Below, one piece after another: positions 8,747 to 29,851 of a stretch of DNA of 64,000 bases. The translations under genes and the position numbers were made by a program. The number at the start of each line of letters is the position of its first letter. Within the stretch, counting starts at the first letter, position 1. This DNA is from Microbacterium limosum (GTDB lineage Bacteria > Actinomycetota > Actinomycetes > Actinomycetales > Microbacteriaceae): assembly GCF_036324365.1 (NCBI RefSeq), contig NZ_CP137080.1:372001-436000 (forward strand), given 5' to 3'. Below the pieces are notes generated by a model that was not told the DNA's origin, made no database searches, and worked only from the letters and a program-made list of their open reading frames with translations.

Positions 8747-8795
8747 CGTTTCACCCTAGGCGACCCCGCGATCACCGACCGGGCAGAATCGACCC

Positions 8796-9287: not shown

Positions 9288-9308
9288 TCGTTACCCGCGT
9301 GAGATCCG

Positions 9309-10806: not shown

Positions 10807-10822
10807 CACGCAATGTTGCGTG
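10807..10822. promoter_or_regulatory. Palindrome upstream of a small membrane protein gene
   Basis: CACGCAA-TG-TTGCGTG is a perfect 7+7 palindrome 33 bases before the ATG at 10855. It could be an operator or a leader hairpin. The remainder of 10636-10854 shows no other feature. Confidence 0.35.
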
Positions 10823-10854
10823 GAGAGGGCATGATGATGCGCGAGAGGACTGAC

Positions 10855-11304
10855 ATGACAGACGCCGACGAGAAGAAGTCCCGACTAGCCGAGCTTCGCG
10901 AGAAGTTCAACGTTCCCGAGCCGATTCCGACACCGGCTCGCACGACGAAACAAGCGAGCCCGCGCGCGGAGTTCGACGCGTTCCAATCTGTCCAATTCGA
11001 GTGGAAGACCACGCTGTTTGCGATGAAGCGTCTGCGCAGTGGAACGATGCTTTGGCGCCTCCGCACGTGGCCCGCAACCGCGATCGGCGTCTTCTTGCTC
11101 GTAGCCTCGGTCGTCGGGCTGATCGTGGGCGGCCCCGCAGCGGCCCTTCCTCTCATCGCTGTATGGATGATCTACACCGTCTCATGGACGATGTGGACCA
11201 TCGTGTTCGAATCGGCGACTCCCCTGAGATGGGAGGAAGTCGTGCACAAGGCCAGCGACTACGCGCACTGGAAGCACAACCCGCGGAACAAACCTGGGTT
11301 CTGA
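10855..11304 (+). CDS. Hypothetical membrane protein, two membrane segments
   Basis: The 149-residue protein has a charged N-terminal half that may form a helix (DEKKSRLAELREKF), a Pro/Thr-rich linker, and two adjacent hydrophobic helices (ATAIGVFLLVASVVGLIVGG and ALPLIAVWMIYTVSWTMWTI), then a hydrophilic tail. ATG 10855 is chosen from several in-frame starts because GAGAGGA precedes it at 6-7 bases. I do not recognise the family. It sits between the DUF222 gene and the polysaccharide locus, convergent with fcl. Confidence 0.65.
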   Translation: MTDADEKKSRLAELREKFNVPEPIPTPARTTKQASPRAEFDAFQSVQFEWKTTLFAMKRLRSGTMLWRLRTWPATAIGVFLLVASVVGLIVGGPAAALPLIAVWMIYTVSWTMWTIVFESATPLRWEEVVHKASDYAHWKHNPRNKPGF

Positions 11305-11331
11305 TCCCAAATACGGCCGTGTCGGTGGGCC

Positions 11332-12312
11332 CTAACCCCGCAGTTTCCCCACGTGCTCGCGGTACCACTCCACCGTCCGCCGCAGCCCCTCCTCGAGGGA
11401 GATCGAGGATCGCCACCCGGCCTCGGCCAGCTTCGACACGTCGAGCAGCTTCTGCGGGGTGCCGTCGGGCTTCGAGGTGTCCCACTCCGTCGCACCCGTG
11501 AAGCCGACCACCGAAGCGACAACAGAGGCGATCCCGGCGATCGTCACGTCCGATCCGGTGCCCACGTTCACCTGCTCCGGCCCGTCGTAGTGCTCCAGCA
11601 GGTGCAGGCAGGCGTCGGCCATGTCGTCGGCGTGCAAGAACTCGCGTCGCGGCGTGCCGGTGCCCCAGTTCGTGACGACCGGAGCCCCGGAACGAGCCGC
11701 CTCGTCGTACCGGCGGATCAGCGCCGGCAGCACGTGGGAACCCTGCGGGGAGAAGTTGTCGTTCGGTCCGTAGAGGTTGGTCGGCATCGCCGAGATCCAC
11801 GGCAGCCCGTACTGGCGGCGCACCGCCTGCACGTGCAGGATGCCGGCGATCTTCGCGATCGCATACGCGTCGTTCGTCGGCTCCAGGTGCCCGGTCAGCA
11901 GCGAGTCCTCGCGGATGGGCTGCTCGGCGAACTTGGGGTAGATGCACGACGAGCCGAGGAAGAGCACTCGCTCGACGTCGACGGAGCGTGCGGCATCCAG
12001 CACGTTGACCTGGATGCGCATGTTGTCGCTGAGGAAGTCGACGGGGTAGGTGGAGTTGGCCATGATGCCGCCCACCTTCGCCGCCGCCAGCACGACATAC
12101 CGGGGGCGTTCGGCCGCGAAGAACTCGAACACGGCGTCGCGGTCTTTCAGGTCGAGCTCCGACGAGGTGCGCCCGATGAGGCGCGAGAAGCCCGCGGCCT
12201 CGAGGCGGCGCCAGATCGCCGAGCCGACCAGCCCGCGGTGCCCCGCGACGTAGAAGACGGCGTCGCGGTCGAGCTCGCCCGGCGTGAATTGCAGGCCGTC
12301 CGAGGCGACCAT
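11332..12312 (-). CDS. fcl: GDP-L-fucose synthase
   Basis: The 326-residue SDR-family epimerase/reductase converts GDP-4-keto-6-deoxy-D-mannose to GDP-L-fucose with NADPH. The nucleotide motif is VAGHRGLVGSAIWR. FLGSSCIYPKFA carries the catalytic Ser; the YxxxK motif is YAIAK; the GDP-fucose synthase landmark NLYGPNDNF follows. Its ATG (12312) overlaps the gmd stop in TGATG, so the two are translationally coupled and work in sequence. The same frame remains open well into gmd, but the coupled ATG gives the canonical length. Confidence 0.94.
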   Translation of the reverse strand: MVASDGLQFTPGELDRDAVFYVAGHRGLVGSAIWRRLEAAGFSRLIGRTSSELDLKDRDAVFEFFAAERPRYVVLAAAKVGGIMANSTYPVDFLSDNMRIQVNVLDAARSVDVERVLFLGSSCIYPKFAEQPIREDSLLTGHLEPTNDAYAIAKIAGILHVQAVRRQYGLPWISAMPTNLYGPNDNFSPQGSHVLPALIRRYDEAARSGAPVVTNWGTGTPRREFLHADDMADACLHLLEHYDGPEQVNVGTGSDVTIAGIASVVASVVGFTGATEWDTSKPDGTPQKLLDVSKLAEAGWRSSISLEEGLRRTVEWYREHVGKLRG

Positions 12313-13343
12313 CAGAGCGTTCCCCACGACGCGAGCTTCACCTTGTCGTACCAGGGCTTGCCCTCGTGCTCCAGCGCCTCCACGTCGGCGTCGACCATGA
12401 GTCGGGCCAGCTGCGCGCCGTCGATCGTCGGCGTCCAGCCGAGCTTCTCCTGCGCGCGAGTGGAGTCGCCGATCAGCGCGTCGACCTCGGTGGGCCGCAG
12501 GTAGCGCTCGTCGAACTTCACGAACTCCTGCCAGTCGAGCCCCACATGACCGAAGGATGCCTCGAGGAAGTCCTTGATCGTGTAGCCGACGCCCGTGGCC
12601 AGCACGTAGTCGTCGGGGGTGTCGACCTGCAGCATGCGCCACATGCCCTCGACGTACTCGGCGGCGTAGCCCCAGTCGCGGATCGACTCGAGGTTGCCGA
12701 GGTAGATGTCCTTCTGCACGCCGGCCTTGATGCGCGCGACGGCGCGGGTGATCTTGCGGGTCACGAACGTCTCGCCGCGGCGGGGCGACTCGTGATTGAA
12801 GAGGATGCCGTTGACCGCGAACATGTCGTACGCCTCGCGGTAGTTCTTGGTGATCCAGTAGCTGTAGAGCTTTGCGGCCGCGTAGGGCGAGCGCGGGTAG
12901 AACGGGGTGTCCTCGTTCTGGGGCGGGGGAGTGGCCCCGTACAGCTCCGACGACGACGCCTGGTAGAACTTCGTCTTGATGCCCGACAGACGCACCGCCT
13001 CGAGCAGACGGATCGTGCCGGTGCCGGTCGTGTCGGCGGTGTGCTCGGGCTCGTCGAACGAGACCCGCACGTGCGACTGCGCGGCCAGGTTGTAGACCTC
13101 GTCGGGGTTGATCTCGGCCATCAGCGTGACCAGGCGGGCCCCGTCGGAGAGGTCGCCGTAGTGCAGGAAGAGCTTTGCCGCGGGGTCGTGGGGGTCGACG
13201 TAGAGGTGGTCGATGCGGGAGGTGTTGAAGGTGGAGGCGCGGCGGATCATGCCGTGCACCTCGTAGCCCTTGGCGAGCAGCAGCTCGGTGAGGTACGAAC
13301 CGTCCTGGCCTGTGATTCCGGTGATGAGGGCGCGCTTGGTCAA
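12312..13343 (-). CDS. gmd: GDP-mannose 4,6-dehydratase
   Basis: The 343-residue extended SDR makes GDP-4-keto-6-deoxy-D-mannose, the precursor of GDP-L-fucose. It shows [16 protein letters not shown] (NADP site), [15 protein letters not shown], the catalytic [10 protein letters not shown] and [17 protein letters not shown], all classical for Gmd. The start is TTG at 13343, overlapping the glycosyltransferase stop (TTGA), with GGAG about seven bases ahead. It forms an operon with the upstream glycosyltransferase and downstream fcl. No GDP-mannose synthesis genes are in the window, so they must be elsewhere. Confidence 0.95.
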
Positions 13344-14641: not shown

Positions 14642-14697
14642 ATCAGTGACACTATCGTGGTAGTGGTTCCGGGCGCGTGAAACGGGGGAGGCAGCGT

Positions 14698-15264
14698 GTG
14701 GCAGACGTCCCAGTGATCGATCTATCAAAGGCGCCTGGGGAGCGCGCAGCGTGGGACAGGCCAGCGTGGGTCGTTTATCTGTGGGGCATCTGCGAGCTGC
14801 TGTTCGTCACGAATCCGTGGCAGATCAGTTCGGGCATTCGCGTGCGCGTGCTGCGGGCGTTCGGTGCCGAGATCGGCAACGGCGTTGTCTTCCGACCGCG
14901 CACCCGAGTCAAGTTTCCGTGGAAGCTGCACATCGGCGACCGCTCGTGGATCGGCGAGGGTGTGTGGTTTCACAACCAGGACCACATCTACGTGGGCCAT
15001 GATGTCGTGATCTCGCAGGAGACGTTTCTCACGACCGGAAGTCACGCACATAGGCGTGACATGGCCCTCATCACGCGTCCGATTCGCATCGAGGACGGCG
15101 CGTGGCTCACATCTCGGTGCACCGTACTCGGTGGGGCCCACGTTGGTCGTTCTTCCCTTGCGACGCCGATGTGCCTTGTGGCCGGCTTAGTGCCCGCTAA
15201 CGTGATTATCAGCGGGCCGACCGCCCAGGTGATCGGGCACCGTTTCCCGTCTACGACCGCATGA
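14698..15264 (+). CDS. WcaF-type acyltransferase (left-handed beta-helix)
   Basis: The 188-residue protein matches WcaF/LacA-family O-acetyltransferases: an N-terminal helical part (WVVYLWGICELLFVTNPWQ), then hexapeptide turns (IGNGVVFRPRTRVKFPWKLHIGDRSWIGEGVW, ISQETFLTTGSHAHRRDMALITRPIRIEDGAWLTSRC cut here only for description). The HN-QDH and SHAHRRD histidines fit the active site. It probably acetylates a sugar of the repeat unit. GTG 14698 is chosen because GGGGGAGG stands seven bases upstream. The next gene overlaps in ATGA. It is divergent from the GT4 gene across about 56 bp, so both share one promoter region. Confidence 0.85.
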   Translation: MADVPVIDLSKAPGERAAWDRPAWVVYLWGICELLFVTNPWQISSGIRVRVLRAFGAEIGNGVVFRPRTRVKFPWKLHIGDRSWIGEGVWFHNQDHIYVGHDVVISQETFLTTGSHAHRRDMALITRPIRIEDGAWLTSRCTVLGGAHVGRSSLATPMCLVAGLVPANVIISGPTAQVIGHRFPSTTA

Positions 15265-16382
15265 AGATAATCCACGTTGTCACGTATGTGTCGCCTGATG
15301 GAGCGTTTGGTGGTCCTACGCGCGTAGCCTTAGCTCAAGCGGAGGAACTGGCTGCGCGAGGGCACGAAGTCTCGGTGTTTGCGGCGGCACCGGCGGCGCG
15401 AGCTGCAAGCACGGAGCAAGACGGCTACGTCCTGCGGACTTTCCCTGCGCAGCGGCCACCCATTGTTCGAGGATTCGCGTTCTTGCGGGCTCGAGGTATG
15501 CTGCGAGCCCTAAAGCGGACGCTCCAGTCCGTGGATGTCGCGCACGTTCACCTTGCTCGAGATCTCGTCACTCTGCCCGCTGCGTCACTGTTCCGTAGGC
15601 AGGGCACTCCCTACGTGGTTCAGCCGCACGGCATGATCGACGCGTCTGATCGGCTGCTTGCCGTACCTTTGGACAAGTTTGCAACTCGGCCCGCGCTCCG
15701 AGGCGCAGCGGAAGTTCTCGCGCTAACTGCTCGCGAAACCTCTGACCTTGTCGGAGTCGCCCCGGGGATCGTTCCTCGGCGGATCGGAAATGGGCTCAAG
15801 CTCGGGAACATCCCGCCGTACGAAGGACGCGGTGACGTAGTGATGTTCCTGGCTCGGTTGCATCCTCGCAAGCGTCCGCTAGCATTCGTGCGGATGGCTG
15901 CGCTTCTCGCCGAAAGGTTCTCGAGCGCGCGATTTGTGCTTATCGGCCCGGACGAAGGCGAGGGGGCAGCTGTACGCGATGCCATCGCCGGCTCGGGGCA
16001 CTCGGAGCAGATCACGTGGATGGGAGCAGCGTCGCCGGAGCGAACTGACGAGCTTCTTGCGACGGCGAAGGTGTATGTGCTTCCGGCCTTCGACGAGGTC
16101 TTTCCTATGTCAGTACTGGAAGCGATGCGGGCGGGTACTCCAGTGGTCACAACTGACTCGCTTGGAATCGCCGCCGACTGCCGTGCTCACGGAGCCGCGC
16201 TTGTGACGGATGGATCCGCCCACCAGCTTGCCGCGGCAGTAGCCTCTCTACTCGATGACGCCACCCTTGCTGAAGAGATTCGAATAGGGGCGGGCAGATA
16301 CCTGGAAGAGCAGCTGAACATCGCGCGTGTCGCAGAGCAATTGGAATCAGCATACGCCGCCGCGGCGGGCAATCGTCGGTGA
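15261..16382 (+). CDS. Glycosyltransferase, GT4 family
   Basis: The 373-residue GT-B protein has the N-terminal acceptor half (IIHVVTYVSPDGAFGGPTRVAL) and the C-terminal donor half with FLARLHPRKRPLAFVRM, the VLIGPDEGEG loop and the EX7E-type DEVFPMSVLEAMRAGTPVV. It should add one sugar to the lipid-linked unit. The donor is unknown. It overlaps the acyltransferase by four bases (ATGA), so it is coupled to it. From here rightwards the codon third positions become visibly less GC-rich than those of the flanking chromosome. Confidence 0.88.
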   Translation: MKIIHVVTYVSPDGAFGGPTRVALAQAEELAARGHEVSVFAAAPAARAASTEQDGYVLRTFPAQRPPIVRGFAFLRARGMLRALKRTLQSVDVAHVHLARDLVTLPAASLFRRQGTPYVVQPHGMIDASDRLLAVPLDKFATRPALRGAAEVLALTARETSDLVGVAPGIVPRRIGNGLKLGNIPPYEGRGDVVMFLARLHPRKRPLAFVRMAALLAERFSSARFVLIGPDEGEGAAVRDAIAGSGHSEQITWMGAASPERTDELLATAKVYVLPAFDEVFPMSVLEAMRAGTPVVTTDSLGIAADCRAHGAALVTDGSAHQLAAAVASLLDDATLAEEIRIGAGRYLEEQLNIARVAEQLESAYAAAAGNRR

Positions 16383-16455
16383 AAGCCTTTACGCGCCCGA
16401 TAGCCGAAAAGTTGATGGATGAACGTGCCCTCGTGATTAGTGGAGCTATGACAGG

Positions 16456-17922
16456 ATGATGCGCAGCAGTGACGGCGTCACAGACACTTCATCTTCCATA
16501 GGAGTGTCCGGATGGGGTAAAGCTGCTCCAGTCCTTGCGGTATACGTCGCGATTTCTCTGTGTGGGTTCGTGCCGATATGGATCATCGCGGCAACCAGCG
16601 CCCCTCCAACATCCGCATGGGTGGGCGTGGCTGTTGCGACGGTGGTAGCGGGCGCCCGATTTGCGTGGGTTATCGGTTCGGGTCGCAGGCGAATCTTCGA
16701 GATGTGCGTATGGCTCTTCTTCTACGTATTCCTTGGCGTCGCCCCCTTGGTTCAGCTGCGGGACCAGGTAGATCCATCGACCACGCCCGACTTGCCTCAC
16801 GACCACGACTGGACTGCGGTCGTAATTGTCCTCACGGCACAAGTTTCCTATATCGCGGGCAATTGGTGGGCGGCACGATCGCGGCACCGCGGAAACATCT
16901 TGCCACGCGGACGCATCGTCGATGGCCACCGCACGAACGTCTTCCTCCTCGCGCTGAGCGCATTAGCGGTTGCGTATGTAGGCCTTGTGGGCCCTGCGAC
17001 ACTCTTTCTGAATCGGACGGAAAGAGGCCAAGTAACTGCGAACGTTTTCGGTAACGACGTCCTTGTCACAGTCCTCAATGCCTTCGTTTCAGTCGGGCTG
17101 CTGGTTGCGATTGTTGCTAGGCTGGAGGTCGAGCGTCGACGTAGGGTGCGCTCGGGCCAGAGTCGATACCTGCCAGTCGTTCTTGCGTGTATTCCGTTGG
17201 CTCTGATCGTGAACCCCATCGGATCGCCACGTTTTACTGTCTTGACTGTGGCGTTGGGGTTGTTTGCGGCGATGGGCGCATACAAGTCTCTGGCGAGGTA
17301 CCGTCTCACGGCGCTCGTGGCTCTAGGTTCAATGTTCTTGCTCTTTCCGGTGCTGGATACGTTCCGACGGACGCTTGAAAACACGATCGAAATCACTGAC
17401 CCATTGGTTTCCCTTAAGAGTGGTGACTTTGATGGCTTCTCGCAGATAATCAATACCGCTGCTTTCGTGGAGGTCAACGGCATTTCCTGGGGGAACCAGA
17501 TTCTTGGTGTCCTGCTATTTTTCGTGCCACGAAGCATGTGGGCAGAAAAGCCCACAGACACCGGCATATTGCTCGCGGATTTCAGGGGCTACGCGTTCAC
17601 CAACTTGTCCGCACCCCTGCCTGCCGAGCTCTACATCAATGGCGGATGGTTTGCTCTAGTTTTGGGCTCGTTGGTCTTCGGGTATGTTGTTTACAGGTTA
17701 GACGCGCGGGCCGAACTGCAGTTGATGCGAATCGGAATTCCAACCGTACTTGGCTGCGTGCTCCCCTTCTACTTGATCTTCGCTATGCGTGGTTCGCTTC
17801 TTCAGGCCACCGCAAACCTTGCGGTAATGCTCCTCACATGGTTTCTCGTTTCCAGGTCAGCAGATGTCTCGAGTCAATCGAGAACGGGAGCATCTGGATC
17901 GGCTTCAAGGAAATCTAAGTAG
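16456..17922 (+). CDS. wzy: O-antigen polymerase-like membrane protein (Wzy)
   Basis: The 488-residue protein has about 10-12 membrane helices and a large loop, with no recognisable soluble domain. The segments RFTVLTVALGLFAAMG and VNGISWGNQILGVLLFFVPRSMWAEKPTDTG resemble the oligosaccharide repeat-unit polymerase (O-antigen polysaccharide polymerase) family, which joins repeat units on the outer side of the membrane. ATG 16456 (or 16459) starts after TATGACAGG. It shares its last 49 bases with the convergent gene at 17874. Its role as the Wzy of this locus follows from topology and the nearby flippase. Confidence 0.8.
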   Translation: MMRSSDGVTDTSSSIGVSGWGKAAPVLAVYVAISLCGFVPIWIIAATSAPPTSAWVGVAVATVVAGARFAWVIGSGRRRIFEMCVWLFFYVFLGVAPLVQLRDQVDPSTTPDLPHDHDWTAVVIVLTAQVSYIAGNWWAARSRHRGNILPRGRIVDGHRTNVFLLALSALAVAYVGLVGPATLFLNRTERGQVTANVFGNDVLVTVLNAFVSVGLLVAIVARLEVERRRRVRSGQSRYLPVVLACIPLALIVNPIGSPRFTVLTVALGLFAAMGAYKSLARYRLTALVALGSMFLLFPVLDTFRRTLENTIEITDPLVSLKSGDFDGFSQIINTAAFVEVNGISWGNQILGVLLFFVPRSMWAEKPTDTGILLADFRGYAFTNLSAPLPAELYINGGWFALVLGSLVFGYVVYRLDARAELQLMRIGIPTVLGCVLPFYLIFAMRGSLLQATANLAVMLLTWFLVSRSADVSSQSRTGASGSASRKSK

Positions 17923-18770
17923 TCGTCAGCAATCGGGAAGGCGTCGACCAGAGTTTCCGGATCGAGGTTTTCGATTGGCAGATCCGCGAACAGCCACAGG
18001 TCTCCGAACAGTCGCGCGACGTCTTCAAAGAATGCAGGAACGCCCCCGACGAGCCAATCGAGGCGCTGCACGCTCGCGGGACCATTGGTGAAGAAGTGAT
18101 GAGGCAGGATGCCCGCCGCGCGATCCTCTGTCAAGGCGAGAGCGCGGAAGCGATCATTGTCTATGCCGACAATGAGGATCCTCGAGAAGCCCAGAAACCC
18201 AGCGACACTCAGTGCATGGTAGGCGGTCATGCTCAGGAATCCGCGAGGGCGCAGCGGGCTGATGTTCCGTGAGAAGCCGTCAAGGCCCAGATTGTTGAAG
18301 CGGATGATCCGCGAAAGCGGAAAGCTCGGTGGCACCTCGTAGCCGTTCGGAACAAAGACCGTTATCCGTGTGTGGGAACCCAGGTACTCCCACACAGCTG
18401 CTTCCCGTGGACCGATTTCTCCGAAGAATTGAGGGTCAGCTAGAACGTAATAGTCGGGTACTAACGCCGCAAGGTCTGAAAGCGCGTAATGGTTGAGAGA
18501 GATCACGCGGGACCCTGACCGCTGTCGCTCGAGGACCCGGTCTTTGTCGATTCTTCGTGCGGATGGGCCAAGAGAGATGAGGATCGCCTCGCGATCGCCC
18601 TCGCGGCCCTTCAAGTTTGCCAGGCGTCTGAGTGAATGCCACCGCTGCACGGGTCTGTCGCACACCTGCACCGCAAACTTTGCGGCGACGCGAGCGCGCA
18701 TACGCAATAGACGCGTAACGCTGAGGCCTCGATAGTCGTGTTGCGATAAGAAAAGCCGCTGCATGTCCAT
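17874..18770 (-). CDS. MptE/Maf- or GT42-like protein, candidate nonulosonic-acid transferase
   Basis: The 298-residue soluble protein carries AILISLGPSARRIDKDRV followed by ISLNHYALSDL and PDYYVLADPQFF. This recalls the N-terminal G-P-S loop and PDYY-x-DP block shared by DUF115/MptE-like proteins (including the Maf proteins that handle pseudaminic or legionaminic acid on flagellins) and GT42 sialyltransferases (GNGPSL). A second block, VAGFLGFSRILIVGIDNDRF, fits a Rossmann strand with an acidic turn, as in DUF115. The first Gly of the GNGPS signature is replaced by Ser-Leu. In this context it may transfer the CMP-activated sugar acid to the repeat unit. Family placement is by eye only. Confidence 0.5.
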   Translation of the reverse strand: MDMQRLFLSQHDYRGLSVTRLLRMRARVAAKFAVQVCDRPVQRWHSLRRLANLKGREGDREAILISLGPSARRIDKDRVLERQRSGSRVISLNHYALSDLAALVPDYYVLADPQFFGEIGPREAAVWEYLGSHTRITVFVPNGYEVPPSFPLSRIIRFNNLGLDGFSRNISPLRPRGFLSMTAYHALSVAGFLGFSRILIVGIDNDRFRALALTEDRAAGILPHHFFTNGPASVQRLDWLVGGVPAFFEDVARLFGDLWLFADLPIENLDPETLVDAFPIADDYLDFLEADPDAPVLD

Positions 18771-18874
18771 TCAGATTCTCCTGGTGCCTCAAATGCTTAT
18801 TGTTGAGGGATGTACTGGCCATAGTAGGCGCGCCCGCTGGCTGCTGAGGGGCGTCGAAGGTTCCCGCGCAGCGC

Positions 18875-20278: not shown

Positions 20279-20611
20279 TTCGCCTACCCTCCGCCGATCT
20301 TTGCTACGCCCGCAGGTGTCCCGCGGAGATCCAGATGGCCCCCCGGTGGCGGGGCGGAACGCCGACCGTCGAGCCGGGGTGAGCGCCTATCCCTCGCTAG
20401 GTGCAAAAGAGACGTCTCGCGGCTGAGGCGACCCGGAGGTCCGGGGGATCGCTGCCGCCGGGGCGCGATGCGCGACGTCGACCAACGCGCAGGGGATACT
20501 CTCGACCGCCGCCTGGCGCGGCACCACCTGGAGGTCACTTCGCCATTGTCGACTTTGTAGCGAACGCGCTGCGCCCGGCCATGATTTGCCGGTGCTTGCG
20601 TGAGCTGTAGA
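20279..20611. other. Gene-free, GC-rich 333-bp gap within the lower-GC cluster
   Basis: I see no convincing gene in either orientation: possible frames are short, arginine/proline-rich and lack ribosome sites. Base composition is more GC-rich than the genes on both sides, as if it were a scar from another source. It must contain the promoter for wzx. Confidence 0.4.
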
Positions 20612-21406
20612 TCACCACGCGGTCCAACCACCGTCTACCGAGAGCACTGTCCCGGTGGTGAAGGACGAGGCCGGCGATGCGAGGTAGAGGAGCGCCGACT
20701 GTATCTCTCGTGGCTCACCGATGCGTCCCAGCATTGTCTGCTCACTTAGGCGTTGTATGAATGCGCCATCGGCCTGAGCCGCGGCAGCAGGGAATGGCCC
20801 GGGCGCAAGGGCGTTCACACGGATGCCGAGGGGGCCGAGTTCGGCGGCTGCGTAGCGCGTCAGCTGAATCATCGCCGCCTTGGCCGCGCCATAGAACGGA
20901 GGGTTTGTGGCACCCTCCGCGCCGTACAGCTGCGGGCGGGGGGCGACTAGCCCATACATCGATGCCACGTTGATGATGCTCGGAGATCCGCCCGCTGCCA
21001 GCGCTTGCTTGAGGCCGACGCGCGAAGCTTCGATACTGCGCGCGACTGCACCTACCCCTAAATCGAATGCTTCGGTCAGGTCTTCGGAGGTAGCTGACTG
21101 CAGCGTACCTCCGCGTCCCACATGTGCGTTGTTGACCAGAACGTCTATGCGGCCATGTGCGTCCGCAGCTTCAGCGATAAGCGCGGGCCATGAGGTGTCG
21201 CGAACATCCGCTTGGGCGACTGTCCAGTCGCCTTCAATGTCTGCAAGCTTCTCGCGCGCACCTTGAGGACTGCGGGCGGCGACGATGACTCTGGCGCCGG
21301 CGGCGCAAAGCGCTTCCACCATCGGCCGGCCGAGCCATCCACCGCCGCCTGAGACGACGGCTACGCAGCCGTGAAGCGAAAAGAGCTGTTCCACTACAGC
21401 TCCCAC
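20612..21406 (-). CDS. SDR-family oxidoreductase of the nonulosonic-acid cluster
   Basis: The 264-residue classical SDR has a cofactor motif SGGGGWLGRP, NNAHVG, the catalytic Ser in NVASMYG and a YGAAK catalytic pair (YxxxK), then LAPGPFP and a SVDGGW ending. It reduces or oxidises a hydroxyl/keto group with NAD(P). SDRs of this kind (PtmA/LegX-like) recur in pseudaminic- and legionaminic-acid clusters, where their exact substrate is often unclear. It starts at GTG 21406 and overlaps the preceding gene by 13 bases, so it belongs to the pseB-pseC operon. It is not one of the five core Pse enzymes and may tailor the sugar. Confidence 0.82.
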   Translation of the reverse strand: MGAVVEQLFSLHGCVAVVSGGGGWLGRPMVEALCAAGARVIVAARSPQGAREKLADIEGDWTVAQADVRDTSWPALIAEAADAHGRIDVLVNNAHVGRGGTLQSATSEDLTEAFDLGVGAVARSIEASRVGLKQALAAGGSPSIINVASMYGLVAPRPQLYGAEGATNPPFYGAAKAAMIQLTRYAAAELGPLGIRVNALAPGPFPAAAAQADGAFIQRLSEQTMLGRIGEPREIQSALLYLASPASSFTTGTVLSVDGGWTAW

Positions 21407-23046
21407 TGGCTTGGGTCTGTCGCCGGGGGAGGCAGGAGCGGTAGCGCGCGTCGCACGGCGGCGCGCGCATCGCTCGAGAAGCTTCGCGGGTTTGCTGCGA
21501 TGCTGGCCAGCTCGTAGATGTGAGAGGGGTCGTCCGCTCCCACGACGATCGTCGACACCCAGCGGTGCGCAAGCACGTACGACAACGCTAGTTCAGTGCG
21601 ATTTGCGAATCCCAGGTCTACCACAGCTTGGTCGATACGAGACAAGAGCGCGTCGCGTGAAATGCCAATGTTTCGCGGCCAGCGAGTCTGGCTGCCTCCG
21701 ATGAGCAGTCCTTGAAGAAACGTGCTCCGCGTCGCGATAACAACATCGGGGCGTAGCGATAGCGCGGCCTGAACCGGCGAGGTGTTCCACCGATCATCGA
21801 GCAGGTTGAATGGCAACTGCACGTAACCGATCGTCTTGTCCTCGAGCGCCCGGAACAACTCGACCGGAGTGGAAAGGGACACGCCGATTCGTTGGACGAT
21901 GCCCTCCTGCTGCAGCGAGACGAGCGCCTCTTTGAACCCTGGGCGCGCCCAGTCGTCCCATCGATGCGCCAGTACGGTCTCGACCGATGGCGCCTGCAGG
22001 CGGACCAGCGACGACATGACGGAGTCATGCACGGCGGCGCCGACGTGAGAAACCGATGCCGTCACTGGTAGGTCCGAGAGCGGGCGAACCTTCGTGATCG
22101 CGACCATCGGACGAGGAAGGCCACGTCGGAAGGCCGCGCCGATGTTCTGCTCGCTTTTCCCATAGGCTGCGGCAGTGTCGATGTGGGTGATTCCGACCTC
22201 GGCGCCGGCCTCGATAATCCCCAGGGCGGACCGTTGTGTCGGTGTGCCTGTCGTGTTCGCGATGCCGTACTGCATGCCGACCTGAGCGCCGCCCAAAGTG
22301 AGTGCACTCTGACCGCCTTTCGCCTCCAGGTGCGGCGTGGCGAGTCCCTGGGTTATATCCGACCGGCGGTCAGCGAGTAGATCCGCCAGCCGCTCCCAGG
22401 GGATCTGAACTGGGTGCTGAATCTGCTCGAAAAGGTCTGCGATGACGGTGTAGTCAAACAGCGTGTCCACCGTCGCGCGCGTGTGCGCCCACTGCGGCGC
22501 GGCATGAGCGACGTCGAGCGGCCGGCCGCGGAATCTTTCGCGGATCCAAGGAGTAACGTGCTCTCGCTCATATTGATGGTCTGCGGACGCCGCGGCTTGA
22601 CGCAGCACAGCTACGGTGAAGGCTTCGCCTGAGACCCCGTAAGGAACTGGACTGGCGTCACCACCGACGTAGGTGTACGGCGTTCTATCGTCTACCTGTG
22701 CGGCTAATGCCTGCGCCAATTTTCCGTCGGGCAGGCAGTTGTCGGCGGTGAGTCGTACCACCACGTCGTCTGGTCGCAGGTCGCGTGTTGCGCGATCAAA
22801 CCGATCCAGGGTGTCACTCAGTGATCCTCGAAACACGCCGATCCCGGCTCGTGTCACTGCTGAGACAATGGGGTCGTCATCAGATTCTGTGCTGGTCGCA
22901 ACGACGACGTCCAAGCCGGTGTTCGCTGCTCGGCGAGCGGCGAGCGTCACAAGTGGCATCCCTGCGACCGACAGCATCGCTTTCGCGGGAAGGCGAGCCG
23001 AATTGAGCCTCGACTGAATCACTACACGCGTGGCCACAATACTCAC
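21394..23046 (-). CDS. Fusion: SpsF-type cytidylyltransferase + aldo/keto reductase
   Basis: Residues 1-235 form an SpsF/PseF/NeuA-like nucleotidyltransferase: VVIQSRLNSARLPAKAML (CTP loop), LVTLAARRAANTGLDVVVATS, RLTADNCLPDG. This half is the best candidate in the window for activating the sugar acid to the CMP-form. Residues about 250-545 form an aldo/keto reductase (TLGGAQVGMQYGIANTTGTP) with the full tetrad: Asp and Tyr in HIDTAAAYGKSE, Lys in VAITKVRP, His in VLAHRWDDW. The GTG start overlaps the pseC stop (GTGA). The reductase partner suggests an extra reduction step before or during activation. Domain calls are firm; the combined reaction is unknown. Confidence 0.85.
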   Translation of the reverse strand: MSIVATRVVIQSRLNSARLPAKAMLSVAGMPLVTLAARRAANTGLDVVVATSTESDDDPIVSAVTRAGIGVFRGSLSDTLDRFDRATRDLRPDDVVVRLTADNCLPDGKLAQALAAQVDDRTPYTYVGGDASPVPYGVSGEAFTVAVLRQAAASADHQYEREHVTPWIRERFRGRPLDVAHAAPQWAHTRATVDTLFDYTVIADLFEQIQHPVQIPWERLADLLADRRSDITQGLATPHLEAKGGQSALTLGGAQVGMQYGIANTTGTPTQRSALGIIEAGAEVGITHIDTAAAYGKSEQNIGAAFRRGLPRPMVAITKVRPLSDLPVTASVSHVGAAVHDSVMSSLVRLQAPSVETVLAHRWDDWARPGFKEALVSLQQEGIVQRIGVSLSTPVELFRALEDKTIGYVQLPFNLLDDRWNTSPVQAALSLRPDVVIATRSTFLQGLLIGGSQTRWPRNIGISRDALLSRIDQAVVDLGFANRTELALSYVLAHRWVSTIVVGADDPSHIYELASIAANPRSFSSDARAAVRRALPLLPPPATDPSQWEL

Positions 23047-24167
23047 CGCAATGCGCGCGTGAGAGACTCCACGACGCGCTCAACCTGTGCATCGCTGAGG
23101 TCCGGAAAGATTGGAAGCGACAGTTCCTGCTTGTAGAACGCTTCTGCATTGGGGCACATACCACGCCGGTATCCCGCGTTGGCGTAAACAGGATGCCAAT
23201 ACACAGGCATGTAGTTCACCTGCACGCCAATACCGTCGGCCCGCATCCGCTCGAAGACTTCGCGTCGGCGGTCGTCGAGTACACGGAGCGGATATAGATG
23301 CCAGACGGGGTCTGCTCCCTCGCGTTGCGCCGGGGTGATAACCCCTTCGACACTTGAGAGAAGATCGTTGTACATACTCGTGATCTCAGCGCGGCGTCGC
23401 TTGAAATCCGACAGCCGCGTTAGCTGAGCCAACCCGAGCGCGCTCGCGATGTCAGTCAGTCTGTAGTTGAGCCCGAACTCTTGCACTTCTTGATGCCAGG
23501 GACCCTCGTCGCGGATCTGGAAACGCGTGGGGTCACGAACTAGTCCAATGAAGTGGAACTCATGTGCTCGCTGCGCCAGAAGTGCATCCTTCGCAACGAG
23601 AGCGCCGCCCTCACCTGTCGTGAGGTTCTTGGTTGGGAAGAACGAGAAGGTTGTCAGATCGGCGAGGCTGCCGACGGGCCGACCCTGGAACGATCCGCCG
23701 ATTGAATGCGCTGCGTCGGCAAGCGTAAGCGCTCCTACCGCTGCGGCGATCTCGTTTAGGGTGTCGTAGTCTGCTGGTTGCCCCGCATAGTCTACGGCGG
23801 CGATTACTCTTGTCCGTTCCGTAGCCAGGGCGCTGACGGCAGCAGGATTGATTAGAGCAGTATCTTCGTCAACGTCGGCGAACCGGACCTTCGCTCCCAA
23901 CATTGACGCTCCCGACGCGGTCGCGATGAACGTCATCGGCGTGGTGATTACCTCATCACCGTGTCCGATTCCTGCCGCGGCATAGGCCATGTGAAGAGCA
24001 GCCGTGCCAGAGGTGGCAGAAACCGCATGGTGGCCGCCCGAGAGCCTCCCGATCGCGTCTTCGAAGGCTGCAACGAATGGCCCCGTCGTCAGCCAGTCAC
24101 CGCGCATCACATCAGCGACAGCCTCGATGTCCTGAGCAGAGATGGACTGGCGTCCATACGGGAGCAT
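23043..24167 (-). CDS. pseC: PseC-type UDP-4-keto-sugar aminotransferase
   Basis: The 374-residue protein is a DegT/DnrJ/EryC1-family PLP aminotransferase. It has the PseC-like N-terminus LPYGRQSISAQDIEAVADVM and GDWLTTGPFV, VSATSGTAALHMAY, the PLP-phosphate and Asp region LADAAHSIGGSFQG, and the internal-aldimine Lys in FSFFPTKNLTTGEGG. It should convert the PseB product to UDP-4-amino-4,6-dideoxy-N-acetyl-altrosamine using glutamate. It starts at ATG 24167, three bases after the pseB stop. The specificity is inferred from the neighbouring pse genes. Confidence 0.88.
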   Translation of the reverse strand: MLPYGRQSISAQDIEAVADVMRGDWLTTGPFVAAFEDAIGRLSGGHHAVSATSGTAALHMAYAAAGIGHGDEVITTPMTFIATASGASMLGAKVRFADVDEDTALINPAAVSALATERTRVIAAVDYAGQPADYDTLNEIAAAVGALTLADAAHSIGGSFQGRPVGSLADLTTFSFFPTKNLTTGEGGALVAKDALLAQRAHEFHFIGLVRDPTRFQIRDEGPWHQEVQEFGLNYRLTDIASALGLAQLTRLSDFKRRRAEITSMYNDLLSSVEGVITPAQREGADPVWHLYPLRVLDDRRREVFERMRADGIGVQVNYMPVYWHPVYANAGYRRGMCPNAEAFYKQELSLPIFPDLSDAQVERVVESLTRALR

Positions 24168-24170
24168 GGG

Positions 24171-25160
24171 TCAGACTCCGGTCTCGATGATTTGGGCGAT
24201 CTCCTCTTGCGTATACCAGGCGTCGTTGAGATCCGACCGATAGGCGAACCCGCGCTCGACCGGCGTCGAACCCTCGGGTGCCTGATATCCCCACGTGGCG
24301 AGGTCGGGCTGAATGATGAAGTACGCACCGTCCTGCACCATCACAGCACGGCGCCCCTCTTCAGGGCTGATCATCTCTTCGTGCAGCTTCTCGCCGGGGC
24401 GCAAGCCGACATCCACCAGGTCGGCCCCGGGGACGATGGCGTGCGCAAGGTCGGTAACCTTCATCGAAGGTATCCGTGGAACCAGCAGCTCACCACCCTG
24501 CATAAGACCAAATGCATCGACTACCATCCGAACGGCCTGTGGCAGCGTGATGAAGAATCGGGTGCAGCGCAGATCCGTAACAGGGAGGGGCTTTCCCTCC
24601 GCGCCGAGCCTCTTAAAGAACGGAATTACAGAGCCGCGGGACCCCATGACGTTGCCATAGCGCACCACTGCAAACCGAGTATCGTACGCCGCTGCGTAGT
24701 GGTTACCGGTGATGAACAGCTTGTCGGCGGTCAGTTTTGTAGCGCCATACAAGTTGATGGGGCTCGATGCCTTGTCGGTCGACAAGGCCACGACCTTCTT
24801 TACTCCGGCATCAATTGAGGCTTCGATGACGTTCTGGCTGCCCAGTACGTTCGTCTTGACAAACTCGAAGGGGTTGTATTCGGCGGTATCGACCTGCTTC
24901 AGGGCCGCAGCATGCACTACGTAGTCGACACCGTGCAGGGCTCGCGCCAGCCTTCGCTCGTCGCGGATGTCGCCAATAAACCAACGAAGGCGGGAATCGT
25001 CCCCGAACTGATGGCGAACCTCATACTGTTTGAGTTCATCCCTAGAGAAGACCACGAGCCTGCGCGGGTTCAGGTTGTCGAGCGCGTATCGGATGAAAGC
25101 CTTCCCAAAGGACCCCGTTCCGCCGGTGATGAGAATGTTAGATCCCGTCAGGATGGTCAC
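24171..25160 (-). CDS. pseB: PseB-type UDP-N-acetylglucosamine 4,6-dehydratase (5-inverting)
   Basis: This 329-residue SDR is very close to PseB/FlaA1 in pattern: ILITGGTGSFGKAFIRYAL, VFSRDELKQYEVRHQF, FIGDIRDERRL, AAALKQVDTAEYNPFEFVKTN, the TDKASSPINLYGATKL region containing YxxxK, and PVTDLRCTRFFITLPQAV. It starts the pathway by turning UDP-GlcNAc into UDP-2-acetamido-2,6-dideoxy-L-arabino-hexos-4-ulose. GTG 25160 gives the normal family length; upstream in-frame codons belong to the divergent gene. It heads a minus-strand operon with pseC, the SpsF-AKR fusion and the SDR. Confidence 0.92.
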   Translation of the reverse strand: MTILTGSNILITGGTGSFGKAFIRYALDNLNPRRLVVFSRDELKQYEVRHQFGDDSRLRWFIGDIRDERRLARALHGVDYVVHAAALKQVDTAEYNPFEFVKTNVLGSQNVIEASIDAGVKKVVALSTDKASSPINLYGATKLTADKLFITGNHYAAAYDTRFAVVRYGNVMGSRGSVIPFFKRLGAEGKPLPVTDLRCTRFFITLPQAVRMVVDAFGLMQGGELLVPRIPSMKVTDLAHAIVPGADLVDVGLRPGEKLHEEMISPEEGRRAVMVQDGAYFIIQPDLATWGYQAPEGSTPVERGFAYRSDLNDAWYTQEEIAQIIETGV

Positions 25161-25254
25161 GTTGAGGGGCCCCCGATGCCGTCGTGGATTGTTGTTGCCG
25201 CGATCTGGTCGCCGTCCTCGCGGATGTGGCAACTCTCCGAAGTATCTTACTGAA

Positions 25255-26805
25255 GTGCCTCCCATTCCTGGATCTGCCTCCGACCGAGCAGAGAAGACCC
25301 TTCCTCGCTCTGTCTTGATCCATCTCAACGCTGGTGAACGGTTCGGCATGGGGCACTGCATGCGTGGCGTCGCCCTTGCTGAGGAGGCAGCGCGCCGCGG
25401 GTGGACCGTTGCGGTGGCGGGCGACATGAGCCCCGGGGCCGTGGCGATGCTTCGCGCGGTACCGGGAGACGTGCGCGTGGAGGCGGGGCCATTAGCTCAG
25501 GGTTCGGATCGGGTCCTGAGGCTGGCCAATTTGATGCGTCCTGATGTCGTGCATCTCGATACGTATTGGGGTGAGTTCGAAGCCCTAACGGGAGCCTCGT
25601 GGCTGCTCAGCAACATGCAGGATGGCCGTTACGGGGCTCGACACGCTGACCTCGCGATCGACGCGAACATCGGCGGTGAGGCGGCGTTTGCATCTCCGCA
25701 CTTGAGCCGATTTCAAGCTGCCGGTGGACGAGTTGCACTTACTAGGGCCGCAGTCCGGCGTCACCGCCGTGTCTGGGAGCCTCGCCAGGCTCGGCGTGTC
25801 CTTGTTGTGATCGGGGGGACGGATCCGTTTAACGTCACACCTCGGGTCATTGATGCGCTTGAAGTGACGTCGGGGCGACTTGAGGTGACTGTGGTCAGCC
25901 CCGCCGGCAACCCAAATGTGGCTCAGGCAGCGGCAAGAAGTAGGCATGACGTGACCGTGAAGCCGTTCGTTGATGACTTGCCCGACTTGGCCGCGAAACA
26001 CGACCTCGTCATCAGTGCGGCCGGCACCTCCATCCTGGACTTTGCGTGCATGGGGCTGCCGATGGCGCTCGTCAGCGTCACGGACAACCAAGCGGCCGGC
26101 TATCGCCAGGCGACCGCGTCGGGCCTCGGCGTGCCGCTCGGCGAGCCACCGCACGCAGACCTTGAGAACCGCATGCAATTCCTAGATGGGATTCTGGCCG
26201 ACGCCGAACGGCTACGAAGGATGTCGGAAGCCGGCCGACAGTCTGTCGATGGACTTGGTGCGTGGCGAATCGTTTCCGCCTGGGAATGCCAAACCCCTGC
26301 GGCCCGCCCCATCCAGCGGGACGTGAGGCCGATTGGGGTGCGCCCGGCGCGCATGTCGGACGCCGAGCAGTTGTTGAGTTGGCGGAATGACCCGCAGACG
26401 CGCCTGCGGTCGCGACAAACCGACGAAATCACGATGGGCTCCCACCGCAGCTGGCTGCAAGCCACGCTCGAATCCCGTGCGCAACTCCTGCTCGTCGCAG
26501 AGGATGGCCAAAACCCGGTAGGGACGGTGCGCTGGGACGCCGTCGGCCGATCTCGGTGGGAAGTTTCGATCAATGTTGCCCCGACTGCGAGAGGCCGCGG
26601 TATCGCGGCTAGTGCGCTGCGTGCAGCCGAACGGGCTTTGCTCGACGAGTATCCGGAAGCTCCCCTTGCCATGGTCGCTTGGGTCCATCCGGACAACGAG
26701 CCCTCGCTGCGGCTGTTTAGCGCTGCGGGCTACCTGCCGGACAAGCCAGCGGAATCGGGCTTCCTCTCCTTCGTCAAGCAAAGGATCAAATCAGATCCCA
26801 TGTGA
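25255..26805 (+). CDS. pseG-pseH: Fusion PseG-PseH: UDP-sugar hydrolase + N-acetyltransferase
   Basis: Residues about 15-345 form a GT-B-like PseG UDP-sugar hydrolase with the signature GERFGMGHCMRGVALAEE, the VVIGGTDPFN nucleotide strand and LVISAAGTSILDFACMGLP. Residues about 350-516 form a GNAT acetyltransferase like PseH: IGVRPARMSDAEQLLSWRND, INVAPTARGRGIAASAL (acetyl-CoA loop) and the NEPSLRLFSAAGY motif. Together they would acetylate the 4-amino group and remove UDP, giving 2,4-diacetamido-2,4,6-trideoxy-L-altrose. Start at GTG 25255 is tentative. It is the only + strand gene among the minus-strand pse genes, divergent from pseB (94 bp) and overlapping the pseI 3' end by 20 bp. Confidence 0.87.
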   Translation: MPPIPGSASDRAEKTLPRSVLIHLNAGERFGMGHCMRGVALAEEAARRGWTVAVAGDMSPGAVAMLRAVPGDVRVEAGPLAQGSDRVLRLANLMRPDVVHLDTYWGEFEALTGASWLLSNMQDGRYGARHADLAIDANIGGEAAFASPHLSRFQAAGGRVALTRAAVRRHRRVWEPRQARRVLVVIGGTDPFNVTPRVIDALEVTSGRLEVTVVSPAGNPNVAQAAARSRHDVTVKPFVDDLPDLAAKHDLVISAAGTSILDFACMGLPMALVSVTDNQAAGYRQATASGLGVPLGEPPHADLENRMQFLDGILADAERLRRMSEAGRQSVDGLGAWRIVSAWECQTPAARPIQRDVRPIGVRPARMSDAEQLLSWRNDPQTRLRSRQTDEITMGSHRSWLQATLESRAQLLLVAEDGQNPVGTVRWDAVGRSRWEVSINVAPTARGRGIAASALRAAERALLDEYPEAPLAMVAWVHPDNEPSLRLFSAAGYLPDKPAESGFLSFVKQRIKSDPM

Positions 26806-27847
26806 GTGGCGTACCGCGCTCTACGTCGGTAACGAATGGTCTTCCAAGCACAACATCAATTGCGTCGGCAGGCAGCCCGCCCGCTGGTCGGATTGACCGC
26901 ACGTTGGACGGAGTAACAAGGTCGCCCTTCTTCACGTCGGAAACCACAAACAGCGATCGGCGCAGTGCGAGAACCGCGCGCTCCTCCGGCGTCGGCCCGA
27001 ATCCGGTACCCGACTGCGTCGCTATCCTTGCTTGCTCCGCCGACACGACGAGGGACGTGAGCTCGGCAGGCGACAGCGAGAAGTCCGAGTCGACGCCGCC
27101 GTCCGAACGGTCCAAAGTCACATGCTTCTCGATGACCACAGCGCCCAGAGCGACCGCGGCAACAGACACACCAATCCCGAGTGTGTGGTCCGATAGACCA
27201 ACAGGAACGCCGAAAGCGCGCCGGAGTGCGTCGATGTTTCCGAGCCGTGCTTCTTGTGGCGTTGCTGGGTATGCCGCGGTGCATGCCAGAAGAACTAGTT
27301 GGCGGCAACCAGCGTCGTGAGCGGCAGAAACCGCGGCGTCGATCTCGGCGAGGGTCGCCATTCCTGTCGACATGATGATGGGCTTTCCCGTCCGCGCGAT
27401 CTCGCGAATCAACGGGAGGTCAACGATTTCAGCTGACGCAGTCTTGTAGAGCTCGACACCGAGGCCCTCAAGCAACTCGACGGAGGAGGGATCAAATGGG
27501 GTCGAAAACGGGATGAGTCCGCGGGATCGAGCGCGTTCGAAAATGGGAGCATGCCAGTCCCACGGGGTGTGCGCCTCCTCATACAGTTCGTATAGCGTGC
27601 GTCCACCCCACAAACCATGGCTGTCCGCGATTCGAAACCCGGGCTTGTCCGATCGGATCGTCAGAGTGTCCGCGGTATACGTTTGGATCTTTAGCGCCTG
27701 CGCACCGCTCTCTGCCACGGCGTCCACGATCGCGAACGCTCGATCGAGGTCGCCGTTGTGGTTGCCCGACATTTCCGCGATGACAAAGGGCGGTGCTTGC
27801 GTAGCGATTGTCGCCTTGCCAACTGGGATCACCTGGGATGAGGTCAC
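26786..27847 (-). CDS. pseI: Pseudaminic acid synthase (NeuB/PseI family)
   Basis: The 353-residue protein has an N-terminal NeuB TIM barrel and a C-terminal SAF (antifreeze-like) domain (SLFVVSDVKKGDLVTPSNVR). It condenses the trideoxy hexose with phosphoenolpyruvate to the nine-carbon acid. PseI-type landmarks are FVIAEMSGNHNGDLDRA, ALKIQTYTADTLTIRSD, a HGLWGGRTLYELYEEA segment, AHTPWDWHAPIF, PFSTPFDPSSVELLE and IMSTGMATLAEID. The TYTADT, LW-G and TPW-WH blocks favour PseI over sialic- or legionaminic-acid synthases. GTG 27847 is the start. It is convergent with the PseG-PseH gene. Confidence 0.92.
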   Translation of the reverse strand: MTSSQVIPVGKATIATQAPPFVIAEMSGNHNGDLDRAFAIVDAVAESGAQALKIQTYTADTLTIRSDKPGFRIADSHGLWGGRTLYELYEEAHTPWDWHAPIFERARSRGLIPFSTPFDPSSVELLEGLGVELYKTASAEIVDLPLIREIARTGKPIIMSTGMATLAEIDAAVSAAHDAGCRQLVLLACTAAYPATPQEARLGNIDALRRAFGVPVGLSDHTLGIGVSVAAVALGAVVIEKHVTLDRSDGGVDSDFSLSPAELTSLVVSAEQARIATQSGTGFGPTPEERAVLALRRSLFVVSDVKKGDLVTPSNVRSIRPAGGLPADAIDVVLGRPFVTDVERGTPLTWDLI

Positions 27848-28070
27848 TCACTGAGCTTAGGGTCGAGACTCAGTCGAAGCACATCGACGGGTGGTTGAGG
27901 GCCTTCGCGCTTCGGACGCTCCAGCGAACGGTAATCGGCGGTCGATTAGGGCGCGGATGGGGCCTCTGCGCAAATGCCGAGGCGCCATGTCCCGCTCCCT
28001 GGGATAGCCAAGGGCAGCAGGCCTGAACGGCACGGCTGCGCCCTGAGCTCGCCGGGCGGAGCGAATACGT

Positions 28071-29741: not shown

Positions 29742-29851
29742 CACGGTATCAGCGGTATATGACGCCTCGGTAAACCCAGGGGTGTTTTGGGGGCGTGGGG
29801 GGTGATGTTGGCGGAGGCGATGGGCAAACCGCACACGCTACGGTCGTGGTC

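What the first reader, a model, noticed from the sequence alone, without database searches (positions are those of the whole stretch)
20612..27847. Complete pseudaminic-acid-type pathway in an actinobacterial polysaccharide locus
PseB-, PseC-, PseG-, PseH- and PseI-type enzymes and a CMP-transferase-like domain are all present. The PseI landmarks (TYTADT, LW-G, AHTPWDWH) and the dehydratase and aminotransferase motifs support this route over sialic or legionaminic acid. Pse is best known from flagellins and Gram-negative capsules; here it would decorate a Wzx/Wzy polymer also carrying fucose genes.
Basis: partly seen in the sequence, partly recalled or inferred. Interest (0 to 1): 0.8.

Follow-up and report, generated by a model that had tools for sequence, protein, structure and literature searches.

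The report
Pseudaminic-acid-type cassette with extra tailoring enzymes
An actinobacterium carries an apparently complete gene set for a bacterial sialic-acid-like sugar of the pseudaminic kind, with two extra redox enzymes that probably alter the sugar and an unannotated, sialyltransferase-shaped protein that may attach it to a surface polysaccharide.

Summary
20612-27847 encodes PseB- and PseI-type enzymes above curated cut-offs, PseC just below its cut-off, a weaker PseG-PseH fusion, and an SpsF-like cytidylyltransferase: a Pse-type route, not Neu or Leg. It is not exotic: PseB exceeds its cut-off in 22 of 325 genomes of the genus, own included, and 22 of 24 further PseB loci carry the whole cassette.

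Two things are less ordinary. (1) The cytidylyltransferase is fused to an aldo-keto reductase (AKR) and followed by a short-chain dehydrogenase (SDR). The 22 other cassettes have neither, and a cytidylyltransferase only 31-40% identical. Of 80 loci found with the fusion, 72 of 75 with AKR also have SDR: apparently one tailoring unit, so the product may be a modified Pse. A Vibrio cluster with the same trio is in print, function unknown (PMC7371886). (2) 17874-18770, matched by no family model, is predicted to have a Maf/GT42-like fold; its family (six of nine matches weak) lies on one contig with a cytidylyltransferase in 9 of 9 genomes. It may be the transferase.

No flagellin was found, so the acceptor is probably a wall or capsule polymer. 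All functions are inferred.

The parts
26786..27847 (-). PseI-type nonulosonic acid synthase, 353 aa, NeuB + SAF domains
   Evidence: TIGR03586 431.7 bits over cut-off 340.25; NeuB_NnaB 276.4 under 399.65; best solved relative is pseudaminic acid synthase 8h2c, 6e-71; only PF03102 match in the genome
25255..26805 (+). PseG-PseH fusion: UDP-sugar hydrolase + GNAT N-acetyltransferase (start codon GTG 25255 is inferred; open frame reaches 25030)
   Evidence: TIGR03590 95.7 bits (below 153.55), TIGR03585 22.1 bits (below 93.1), Pfam Acetyltransf_3 44.3 bits; GMGHCMR motif; one open frame spans both in 17 of 22 other cassettes
24171..25160 (-). PseB-type inverting UDP-GlcNAc 4,6-dehydratase (start GTG 25160 inferred; longer open frame to 25427)
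   Evidence: TIGR03589 455.7 bits over 407.75; YGATK (YxxxK) present; 64-90% identical to the 22 other cassettes
23043..24167 (-). PseC-type aminotransferase, 374 aa
   Evidence: TIGR03588 413.3 bits, cut-off 423.5; LegC family 194.9
21394..23046 (-). SpsF-like cytidylyltransferase (residues about 1-232) fused to an aldo-keto reductase (about 245-545)
   Evidence: Pfam CTP_transf_3 73 bits and Aldo_ket_red 83.7 bits; AKR tetrad D290 Y295 K319 H361, identical in 76 of 76 AKRs aligned, window included
20612..21406 (-). short-chain dehydrogenase (SDR) that travels with the AKR
   Evidence: adh_short_C2 144.4 bits; YGAAK and an upstream Ser; best NCBIfam match gluconate 5-dehydrogenase 156.5 of 279 bits; nearest solved: galactitol dehydrogenase 2wdz, 105.3 bits
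18875..20278 (-). Wzx-like flippase
   Evidence: Pfam Polysacc_synt 23.8 bits, below cut-off 28.2
17874..18770 (-). P0002: unannotated 298 aa protein, candidate CMP-nonulosonic acid glycosyltransferase with a predicted Maf/GT42-like fold
16456..17922 (+). Wzy-like polymerase
   Evidence: PF14296 20.8 bits (cut-off 26.6), TIGR04370 20.4 (cut-off 40): weak
15261..16382 (+). GT4-type glycosyltransferase
   Evidence: Pfam Glycos_transf_1 91.9 bits
14677..15264 (+). WcaF-like acetyltransferase
   Evidence: PRK10502 164.7 of 192 bits
13340..14728 (-). WcaI-like glycosyltransferase
   Evidence: PRK10307 259.7 of 276 bits
12312..13343 (-). GDP-mannose 4,6-dehydratase (Gmd)
   Evidence: TIGR01472 513.7 bits over 415
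11332..12315 (-). GDP-L-fucose synthase (Fcl)
   Evidence: NF047922 446.9 of 500 bits
28071..29834 (-). polyprenyl glycosylphosphotransferase that would initiate the repeat unit
   Evidence: TIGR03025 425.9 bits over 295.55

Best explanation
The locus makes a pseudaminic-acid-type sugar and adds it to a polyprenyl-linked surface polysaccharide. Shown by sequence: the enzyme families and their order. Inferred: PseB and PseC turn UDP-GlcNAc into UDP-4-amino-4,6-dideoxy-AltNAc; the PseH domain N-acylates it; the PseG domain removes UDP; PseI condenses the product with PEP to Pse; the SpsF-like domain activates it with CMP. The fused AKR and the adjacent SDR act as one oxidation/reduction unit on the nonulosonic acid (a C-8 or C-4 epimerisation through a keto intermediate is my preferred chemistry), so the activated sugar is a modified Pse. 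P0002, a protein with a predicted Maf/GT42-like fold, transfers it into the fucose-containing repeat unit, which the 28071-29834 enzyme starts, Wzx flips and Wzy polymerises. Step confidences: Pse-type synthesis 0.85; AKR and SDR acting together on this sugar or its activated form 0.6; epimerisation specifically 0.3; P0002 as the transferase 0.6; wall or capsule polymer as acceptor 0.8.
For: PseI and PseB pass curated cut-offs; PseI's best solved match is a pseudaminic acid synthase (242.6 bits), ahead of SpsE (162.1) and SiaC (137.3). Cassette conserved in 22 of 24 further PseB loci, PseB 64-90%, PseC 55-78%, PseI 55-82% identical. AKR-SDR coupling: of 80 loci, 72 have both, 3 AKR only, 5 neither; 0 of 22 AKR-less cassettes has an SDR match. 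AKR tetrad intact in 76 of 76. P0002: fold, profile comparisons, and a cytidylyltransferase on the same contig in 9 of 9 genomes with a match, within 10 kb in 8. No flagellin match in the genome. Gmd, Fcl, initiating transferase, Wzx- and Wzy-like genes alongside.
Against: PseG and PseH are below their curated cut-offs and no model named PseF matched. 27 of 80 loci (23 of them Proteobacteria, 4 Actinomycetota) have the AKR-SDR pair with no nonulosonate or cytidylyltransferase match in the DNA fetched, in the two scanned cases beside a patatin-type lipase gene, so the pair is not nonulosonate-specific. The P0002 homologue in G445 lies in a genome with no NeuB match, so the family is not strictly nonulosonate-specific; six of its nine genome matches are weak (20-26 bits). 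Foldseek ranked a methanogen HPPK (MptE type) first and did not list Maf or Cst in its top 50. Wzx and Wzy matches are below cut-off.
Confidence: 0.6

Rival explanations
1. Ordinary Pse5Ac7Ac pathway: the AKR is an inert fusion partner or acts elsewhere, the SDR is unrelated, and the product is plain Pse.
For: All core steps are present; 22 other cassettes have no AKR or SDR match; SDR and AKR are large families.
Against: AKR tetrad invariant in 76 of 76; SDR present in 72 of 75 loci with AKR and absent from all 22 AKR-less cassettes.
Confidence: 0.25
2. The AKR and SDR make an N-acyl group (for example a hydroxyacyl donor for the PseH domain), not a change on the carbon skeleton.
For: Hydroxybutanoyl-Pse is listed for Acinetobacter (table in passages of PMC9676051); the SDR resembles FabG-type reductases among others; a 3-oxoacyl-ACP reductase gene occurs in a group of Aeromonas flagellin glycosylation islands (passages of PMC7874193).
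Against: The AKR is fused to the cytidylyltransferase, not to the acyltransferase; the SDR's best NCBIfam match is a sugar-acid dehydrogenase; no acyl carrier or acyl-CoA ligase among the genes scanned in 11332-29834.
Confidence: 0.15
3. The product is legionaminic acid, as shown for the Bacillus subtilis sps pathway with UDP-linked precursors.
For: SpsF-like activation domain; B. subtilis sps genes with UDP-linked precursors give Leg (PMC7439481, abstract and passages); SpsE is the second-best solved relative of PseI.
Against: PseB (inverting) equivalog over cut-off, with YxxxK; LegB model only 59.9 bits; PseI over cut-off; solved pseudaminic acid synthase 242.6 bits versus SpsE 162.1.
Confidence: 0.08
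4. P0002 is not the nonulosonate transferase but another enzyme of the MptE-like fold; another glycosyltransferase (15261-16382 or 13340-14728) transfers the sugar.
For: Foldseek's top hits are MptE-type HPPK; a homologue occurs where no NeuB match exists.
Against: Maf ranks first and GT42 chains fourth to eighth by VIA-align; all nine genomes with a family match have a cytidylyltransferase on the same contig; GT4 enzymes normally use UDP- or GDP-sugars (general knowledge, not tested).
Confidence: 0.3

Closest known systems
CMP-Pse pathway of Campylobacter/Helicobacter (PseB-C-H-G-I-F)
   Same: Same synthetic steps by family; PseB and PseI within curated equivalogs.
   Different: PseG and PseH fused and diverged; PseF-type enzyme replaced by an SpsF-like domain fused to AKR; extra SDR; polysaccharide rather than flagellar setting.
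Vibrio B9-25K2 nonulosonate cluster (PMC7371886, section 8 read)
   Same: PseB, PseC, PseG and PseH-type genes, a bifunctional SpsF-type cytidylyltransferase/AKR encoded after PseC, then a dehydrogenase; function of the extras unknown there too.
   Different: There PseH is fused to another domain and a gene with a methylmalonyl-CoA-epimerase-like domain follows; here PseG and PseH are fused and a P0002-type gene is present.
Other Pse cassettes of the genus (L092-L096, L137-L150, L152, L153) and L097 from the same order
   Same: PseI, PseG, PseH, PseB, PseC in 22 of 24 loci examined.
   Different: Cytidylyltransferase 31-40% identical to the window's domain; no AKR, SDR or P0002 match; a GT29-like gene in 15 of 22.
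Maf flagellin transferase and GT42 sialyltransferases (5mu5, Cst-I, Cst-II)
   Different: No significant sequence match to any solved chain; 298 aa, in a Wzx/Wzy-like locus of a genome without a flagellin match.
8-epilegionaminic acid module elaABC of Acinetobacter (PMC9676051, passages)
   Same: A putative oxidoreductase (ElaA) added to a nonulosonate module whose product differs in stereochemistry at C-8.
   Different: Leg, not Pse; the enzymes were not compared here.

Membership tests
CMP-pseudaminic acid pathway | PseB: inverting UDP-GlcNAc 4,6-dehydratase | tested here: met
   TIGR03589 455.7 bits, cut-off 407.75
CMP-pseudaminic acid pathway | PseC: transaminase equivalog | tested here: inconclusive
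   TIGR03588 413.3 bits, 10 bits under cut-off 423.5, far above LegC-type 194.9
CMP-pseudaminic acid pathway | PseG: UDP-sugar hydrolase equivalog | tested here: inconclusive
   95.7 bits, cut-off 153.55; GMGHCMR motif kept
CMP-pseudaminic acid pathway | PseH: N-acetyltransferase equivalog | tested here: inconclusive
   22.1 bits, cut-off 93.1; GNAT domain by Pfam
CMP-pseudaminic acid pathway | PseI: pseudaminic acid synthase equivalog | tested here: met
   TIGR03586 431.7 bits, cut-off 340.25
CMP-pseudaminic acid pathway | PseF: CMP-Pse synthetase equivalog | tested here: inconclusive
   No model named PseF among the 8 NCBIfam matches of 21394-23046; a PseF model (TIGR03584) is recalled, I did not verify that this library holds it; Pfam CTP_transf_3 73 bits
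CMP-pseudaminic acid pathway | product is Pse by chemistry | not testable with these tools
   needs DMB-HPLC, MS, NMR
Sialic acid (NeuB) pathway | NeuB_NnaB equivalog cut-off | tested here: not met
   276.4 bits, cut-off 399.65
Legionaminic pathway | LegB-type dehydratase | tested here: not met
   TIGR04180 59.9 bits of 475 for the PseB-type protein
Aldo-keto reductase superfamily | catalytic Asp-Tyr-Lys-His (the tetrad is recalled knowledge) | tested here: met
   D290 Y295 K319 H361; 76 of 76
Maf/GT42-like transferases (P0002) | shared fold | tested here: met
Maf/GT42-like transferases (P0002) | PF01973 sequence family | tested here: not met
   no hit for P0002 at E 0.5; 8 of 8 homologues scanned match it, E 1.6e-7 to 0.26, all below the cut-off
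Maf/GT42-like transferases (P0002) | CMP-sugar donor use | not testable with these tools
   only genomic association

The most novel reading that the evidence does not exclude
The AKR-SDR pair is a two-enzyme epimerase working on Pse or CMP-Pse, so this cassette and its counterparts in Nocardioides, Knoellia, Raineyella, Legionella, Marinobacter and others make an undescribed or rare Pse epimer (8-epi or 4-epi); and P0002 belongs to a new family of CMP-ulosonate transferases of the Maf/GT42 fold that build wall or capsule polymers in actinobacteria.
Probability: 0.25. Interest if true: 0.75.

Novelty: new variant of a known kind. Interest (0 to 1): 0.5.

Why it matters
The genus supplies a natural comparison: one cassette with the redox pair and 21 same-genus cassettes without it (plus one from the same order), so the chemistry of the pair can be read by comparing sugars. 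The pair sits in Pse-type clusters of several phyla and the papers seen here assign it no function, so solving it once would bear on all of them. An unannotated transferase family of the sialyltransferase fold could explain how some Gram-positive bacteria place nonulosonic acids into polysaccharides.

Tried and rejected
Neu and Leg readings were tested by profile and set aside. Flagellin decoration: set aside because no PF00669 match exists in the genome. A minus-strand gene between PseB and PseI: no family match; the gene there is on the plus strand. AKR-SDR as strictly nonulosonate-specific: rejected, 27 of 80 loci show no such gene in the DNA fetched. P0002 as strictly NeuB-dependent: rejected by G445. 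P0002 against solved structures by sequence: nothing or chance matches only. Foldseek's printed top 50 did not hold Maf or Cst; they came from the VIA-align second look at Foldseek's own top 1000 chains. Searches of genomes for P0002 relatives: 6 of 396 in the order, 2 of 394 in the class, 3 of 378 in the family, own genome included each time. Of the nine distinct genomes with a match, three have strong matches (G000, G445, G1084) and six weak ones of 20-26 bits: five partial, inside proteins of 640-740 aa, and G1232, a 267 aa protein. One search's chance estimates assume one PF02348 gene in the window's own genome, which I did not search for; for G1084 the estimate is 0.09, not small.

Papers: listings only were seen for the searches of pseudaminic with actinobacteria and cell wall, aldo-keto or keto reductase, Kribbella, Gram-positive gene clusters, Microbacterium, 8-epi, teichulosonic, GT29, and Maf/GT42; no title or abstract start there describes this cassette in an actinobacterium. 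Passages or one section were read of PMC7371886, PMC9912281, PMC13317340, PMC3765264, PMC7831098, PMC6801904, PMC7439481, PMC5811610, PMC3628348, PMC9676051, PMC7874193 and PMC3694923; none was read whole. The library misses most subscription journals; Pse in actinomycete cell walls is known to me only by recall. I did not compare the AKR or SDR with ElaA.
Full report
What is there. The window lies in a 2.79 Mb single-contig genome (completeness 99.91) at 372001-436000. The segment 16456-27847 is 61% GC against 69% for 1-12000 and 73% for 30000-64000, as one expects of an exchangeable polysaccharide island. In order: Fcl and Gmd, a WcaI-like transferase, a WcaF-like acetyltransferase, a GT4-type transferase, a Wzy-like protein, an unannotated 298 aa protein (P0002), a Wzx-like protein, an SDR, an SpsF-like cytidylyltransferase/AKR fusion, PseC, PseB, a PseG-PseH fusion on the opposite strand, PseI, and an initiating glycosylphosphotransferase.

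Pse, not Neu or Leg. PseI scores 431.7 bits on the PseI equivalog (cut-off 340.25) and 276.4 on NeuB_NnaB (cut-off 399.65); PseB 455.7 on the inverting dehydratase equivalog (cut-off 407.75) and 59.9 on LegB; PseC 413.3 (cut-off 423.5) and 194.9 on the LegC family. The nearest solved relative of PseI is a pseudaminic acid synthase (242.6 bits), then SpsE (162.1). Weak points: PseG 95.7 of 153.55, PseH 22.1 of 93.1, and no match to a model named PseF. The assignment therefore rests on PseB and PseI and on the conserved neighbourhood.

The cassette recurs. PseI exceeds its cut-off in 7 of 98 relatives searched, own included; PseB in 22 of 325 genomes of the genus, own included. I fetched the 23 other over-cut-off PseB places plus one locus of a genome of the same order found by PseI (24 loci, 22 genomes). 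22 of 24 hold PseI, PseG, PseH, PseB, PseC and a cytidylyltransferase match; the other two (L151, L154) have PseB with a distant NeuB-like gene and no PseC, PseG or PseH match. PseG and PseH form one open frame in 17 of the 22.

The window's cassette differs in one module. Against the 22, PseB is 64-90% identical, PseI 55-82%, PseC 55-78%, but the cytidylyltransferase domain only 31-40%; none of the 24 shows an AKR, SDR or P0002 match within the roughly 20 kb fetched. The cytidylyltransferase is a gene of 236-281 codons in the four of these loci whose frame I could read plainly (L092-L095). The window's activation module has thus probably been swapped for an SpsF-AKR fusion plus SDR. In a tree of 76 AKRs the window's falls with five AKRs, fused or split, of Actinomycetota loci that also carry PseB (Nocardioides, another Nocardioidaceae, Raineyella, Knoellia, a Propionibacteriaceae; support 100/94), so the variant recurs in other actinobacterial families.

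AKR and SDR act as a unit. Of 80 loci fetched with the fusion alignment (357 confirmed, best 80 kept), 72 have AKR and SDR, 3 AKR only, 5 neither (cut-off 100 bits). In 65 of the 72 the SDR match is within 300 bases of the AKR; in L025, L026, L027 and L031 it lies on the other side of the fusion; in L049, L053 and L077 it is 1.2-2.2 kb off. Of the 3 AKR-only loci, L043 ends inside an SDR match, L057 has an SDR match of 89 bits 2.4 kb off, and L067 has none. Of the 5, L048 reaches a contig end, L054 and L078 have weak AKR traces, and L058 and L060 have none. The AKR tetrad is invariant in 76 of 76. Against a nonulosonate-only role: 27 of the 80 have the pair but no match to the cytidylyltransferase, PseB, PseC or PseI in the DNA held (23 Proteobacteria, 4 Actinomycetota); the two whose next gene I scanned have a patatin/cNMP-binding protein. 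The tree needs five changes between the two settings against 22.5 for shuffled labels, so the settings are largely, not wholly, separate lineages. The trio cytidylyltransferase/AKR/dehydrogenase was described in a Vibrio cluster with no function assigned (PMC7371886, section 8); an alpha/keto reductase gene between pseC and pseF is reported in Aeromonas (PMC7874193, passages). My chemistry, oxidation by the SDR and reduction by the AKR on the other face, is inference; the precedent is that 8-epilegionaminic modules carry an added putative oxidoreductase, ElaA (PMC9676051, passages).

Acceptor. No flagellin match in the genome, with the control ringing in 4 of 14 known genomes. With an initiating transferase, Wzx- and Wzy-like proteins (both below cut-off) and GDP-fucose genes alongside, a wall or capsule polysaccharide is the natural acceptor. 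Kdn-bearing teichulosonic acids in actinobacterial walls are in print (passages of PMC7831098 and PMC6801904).

Verdict.

Noticed in passing
L092:8574-9272 and similar genes beside the Pse cassette in 15 of 22 loci: A bacterial GT29-like (sialyltransferase) protein, PF00777 33.3 bits in L092 and 32.5 in L093, over cut-off 23 (only these two scanned), lies beside the Pse cassette. It does not co-occur with a Wzx match (3 of the 22 have one). Bacterial GT29 sequences are in print (PMC5811610, abstract and passages). It may be the Pse transferase of those strains.
   Followed up: partly
L104:15400-18576 (G445): Cytidylyltransferase, HAD-type hydrolase and HMGL-like genes beside a P0002 homologue in a genome without a NeuB match: possibly a route to a CMP-activated ulosonic acid that does not use NeuB.
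   Followed up: partly
L070:9980-13538 and L090:9965-13532: AKR-SDR pair followed by a patatin-type lipase with a cyclic-nucleotide-binding domain, no nonulosonate gene found; other Alphaproteobacteria AKR-SDR loci were not scanned for the lipase. Function unknown.
   Followed up: no
L100-L103 (G319, G409, G200, G228) and L106 (G467): 640-740 aa proteins with an MptE-like (PF01973) part, each on one contig with a cytidylyltransferase gene; of the two scanned, L100 also has a weak GT8-like match and L106 a GT2-like domain.
   Followed up: no
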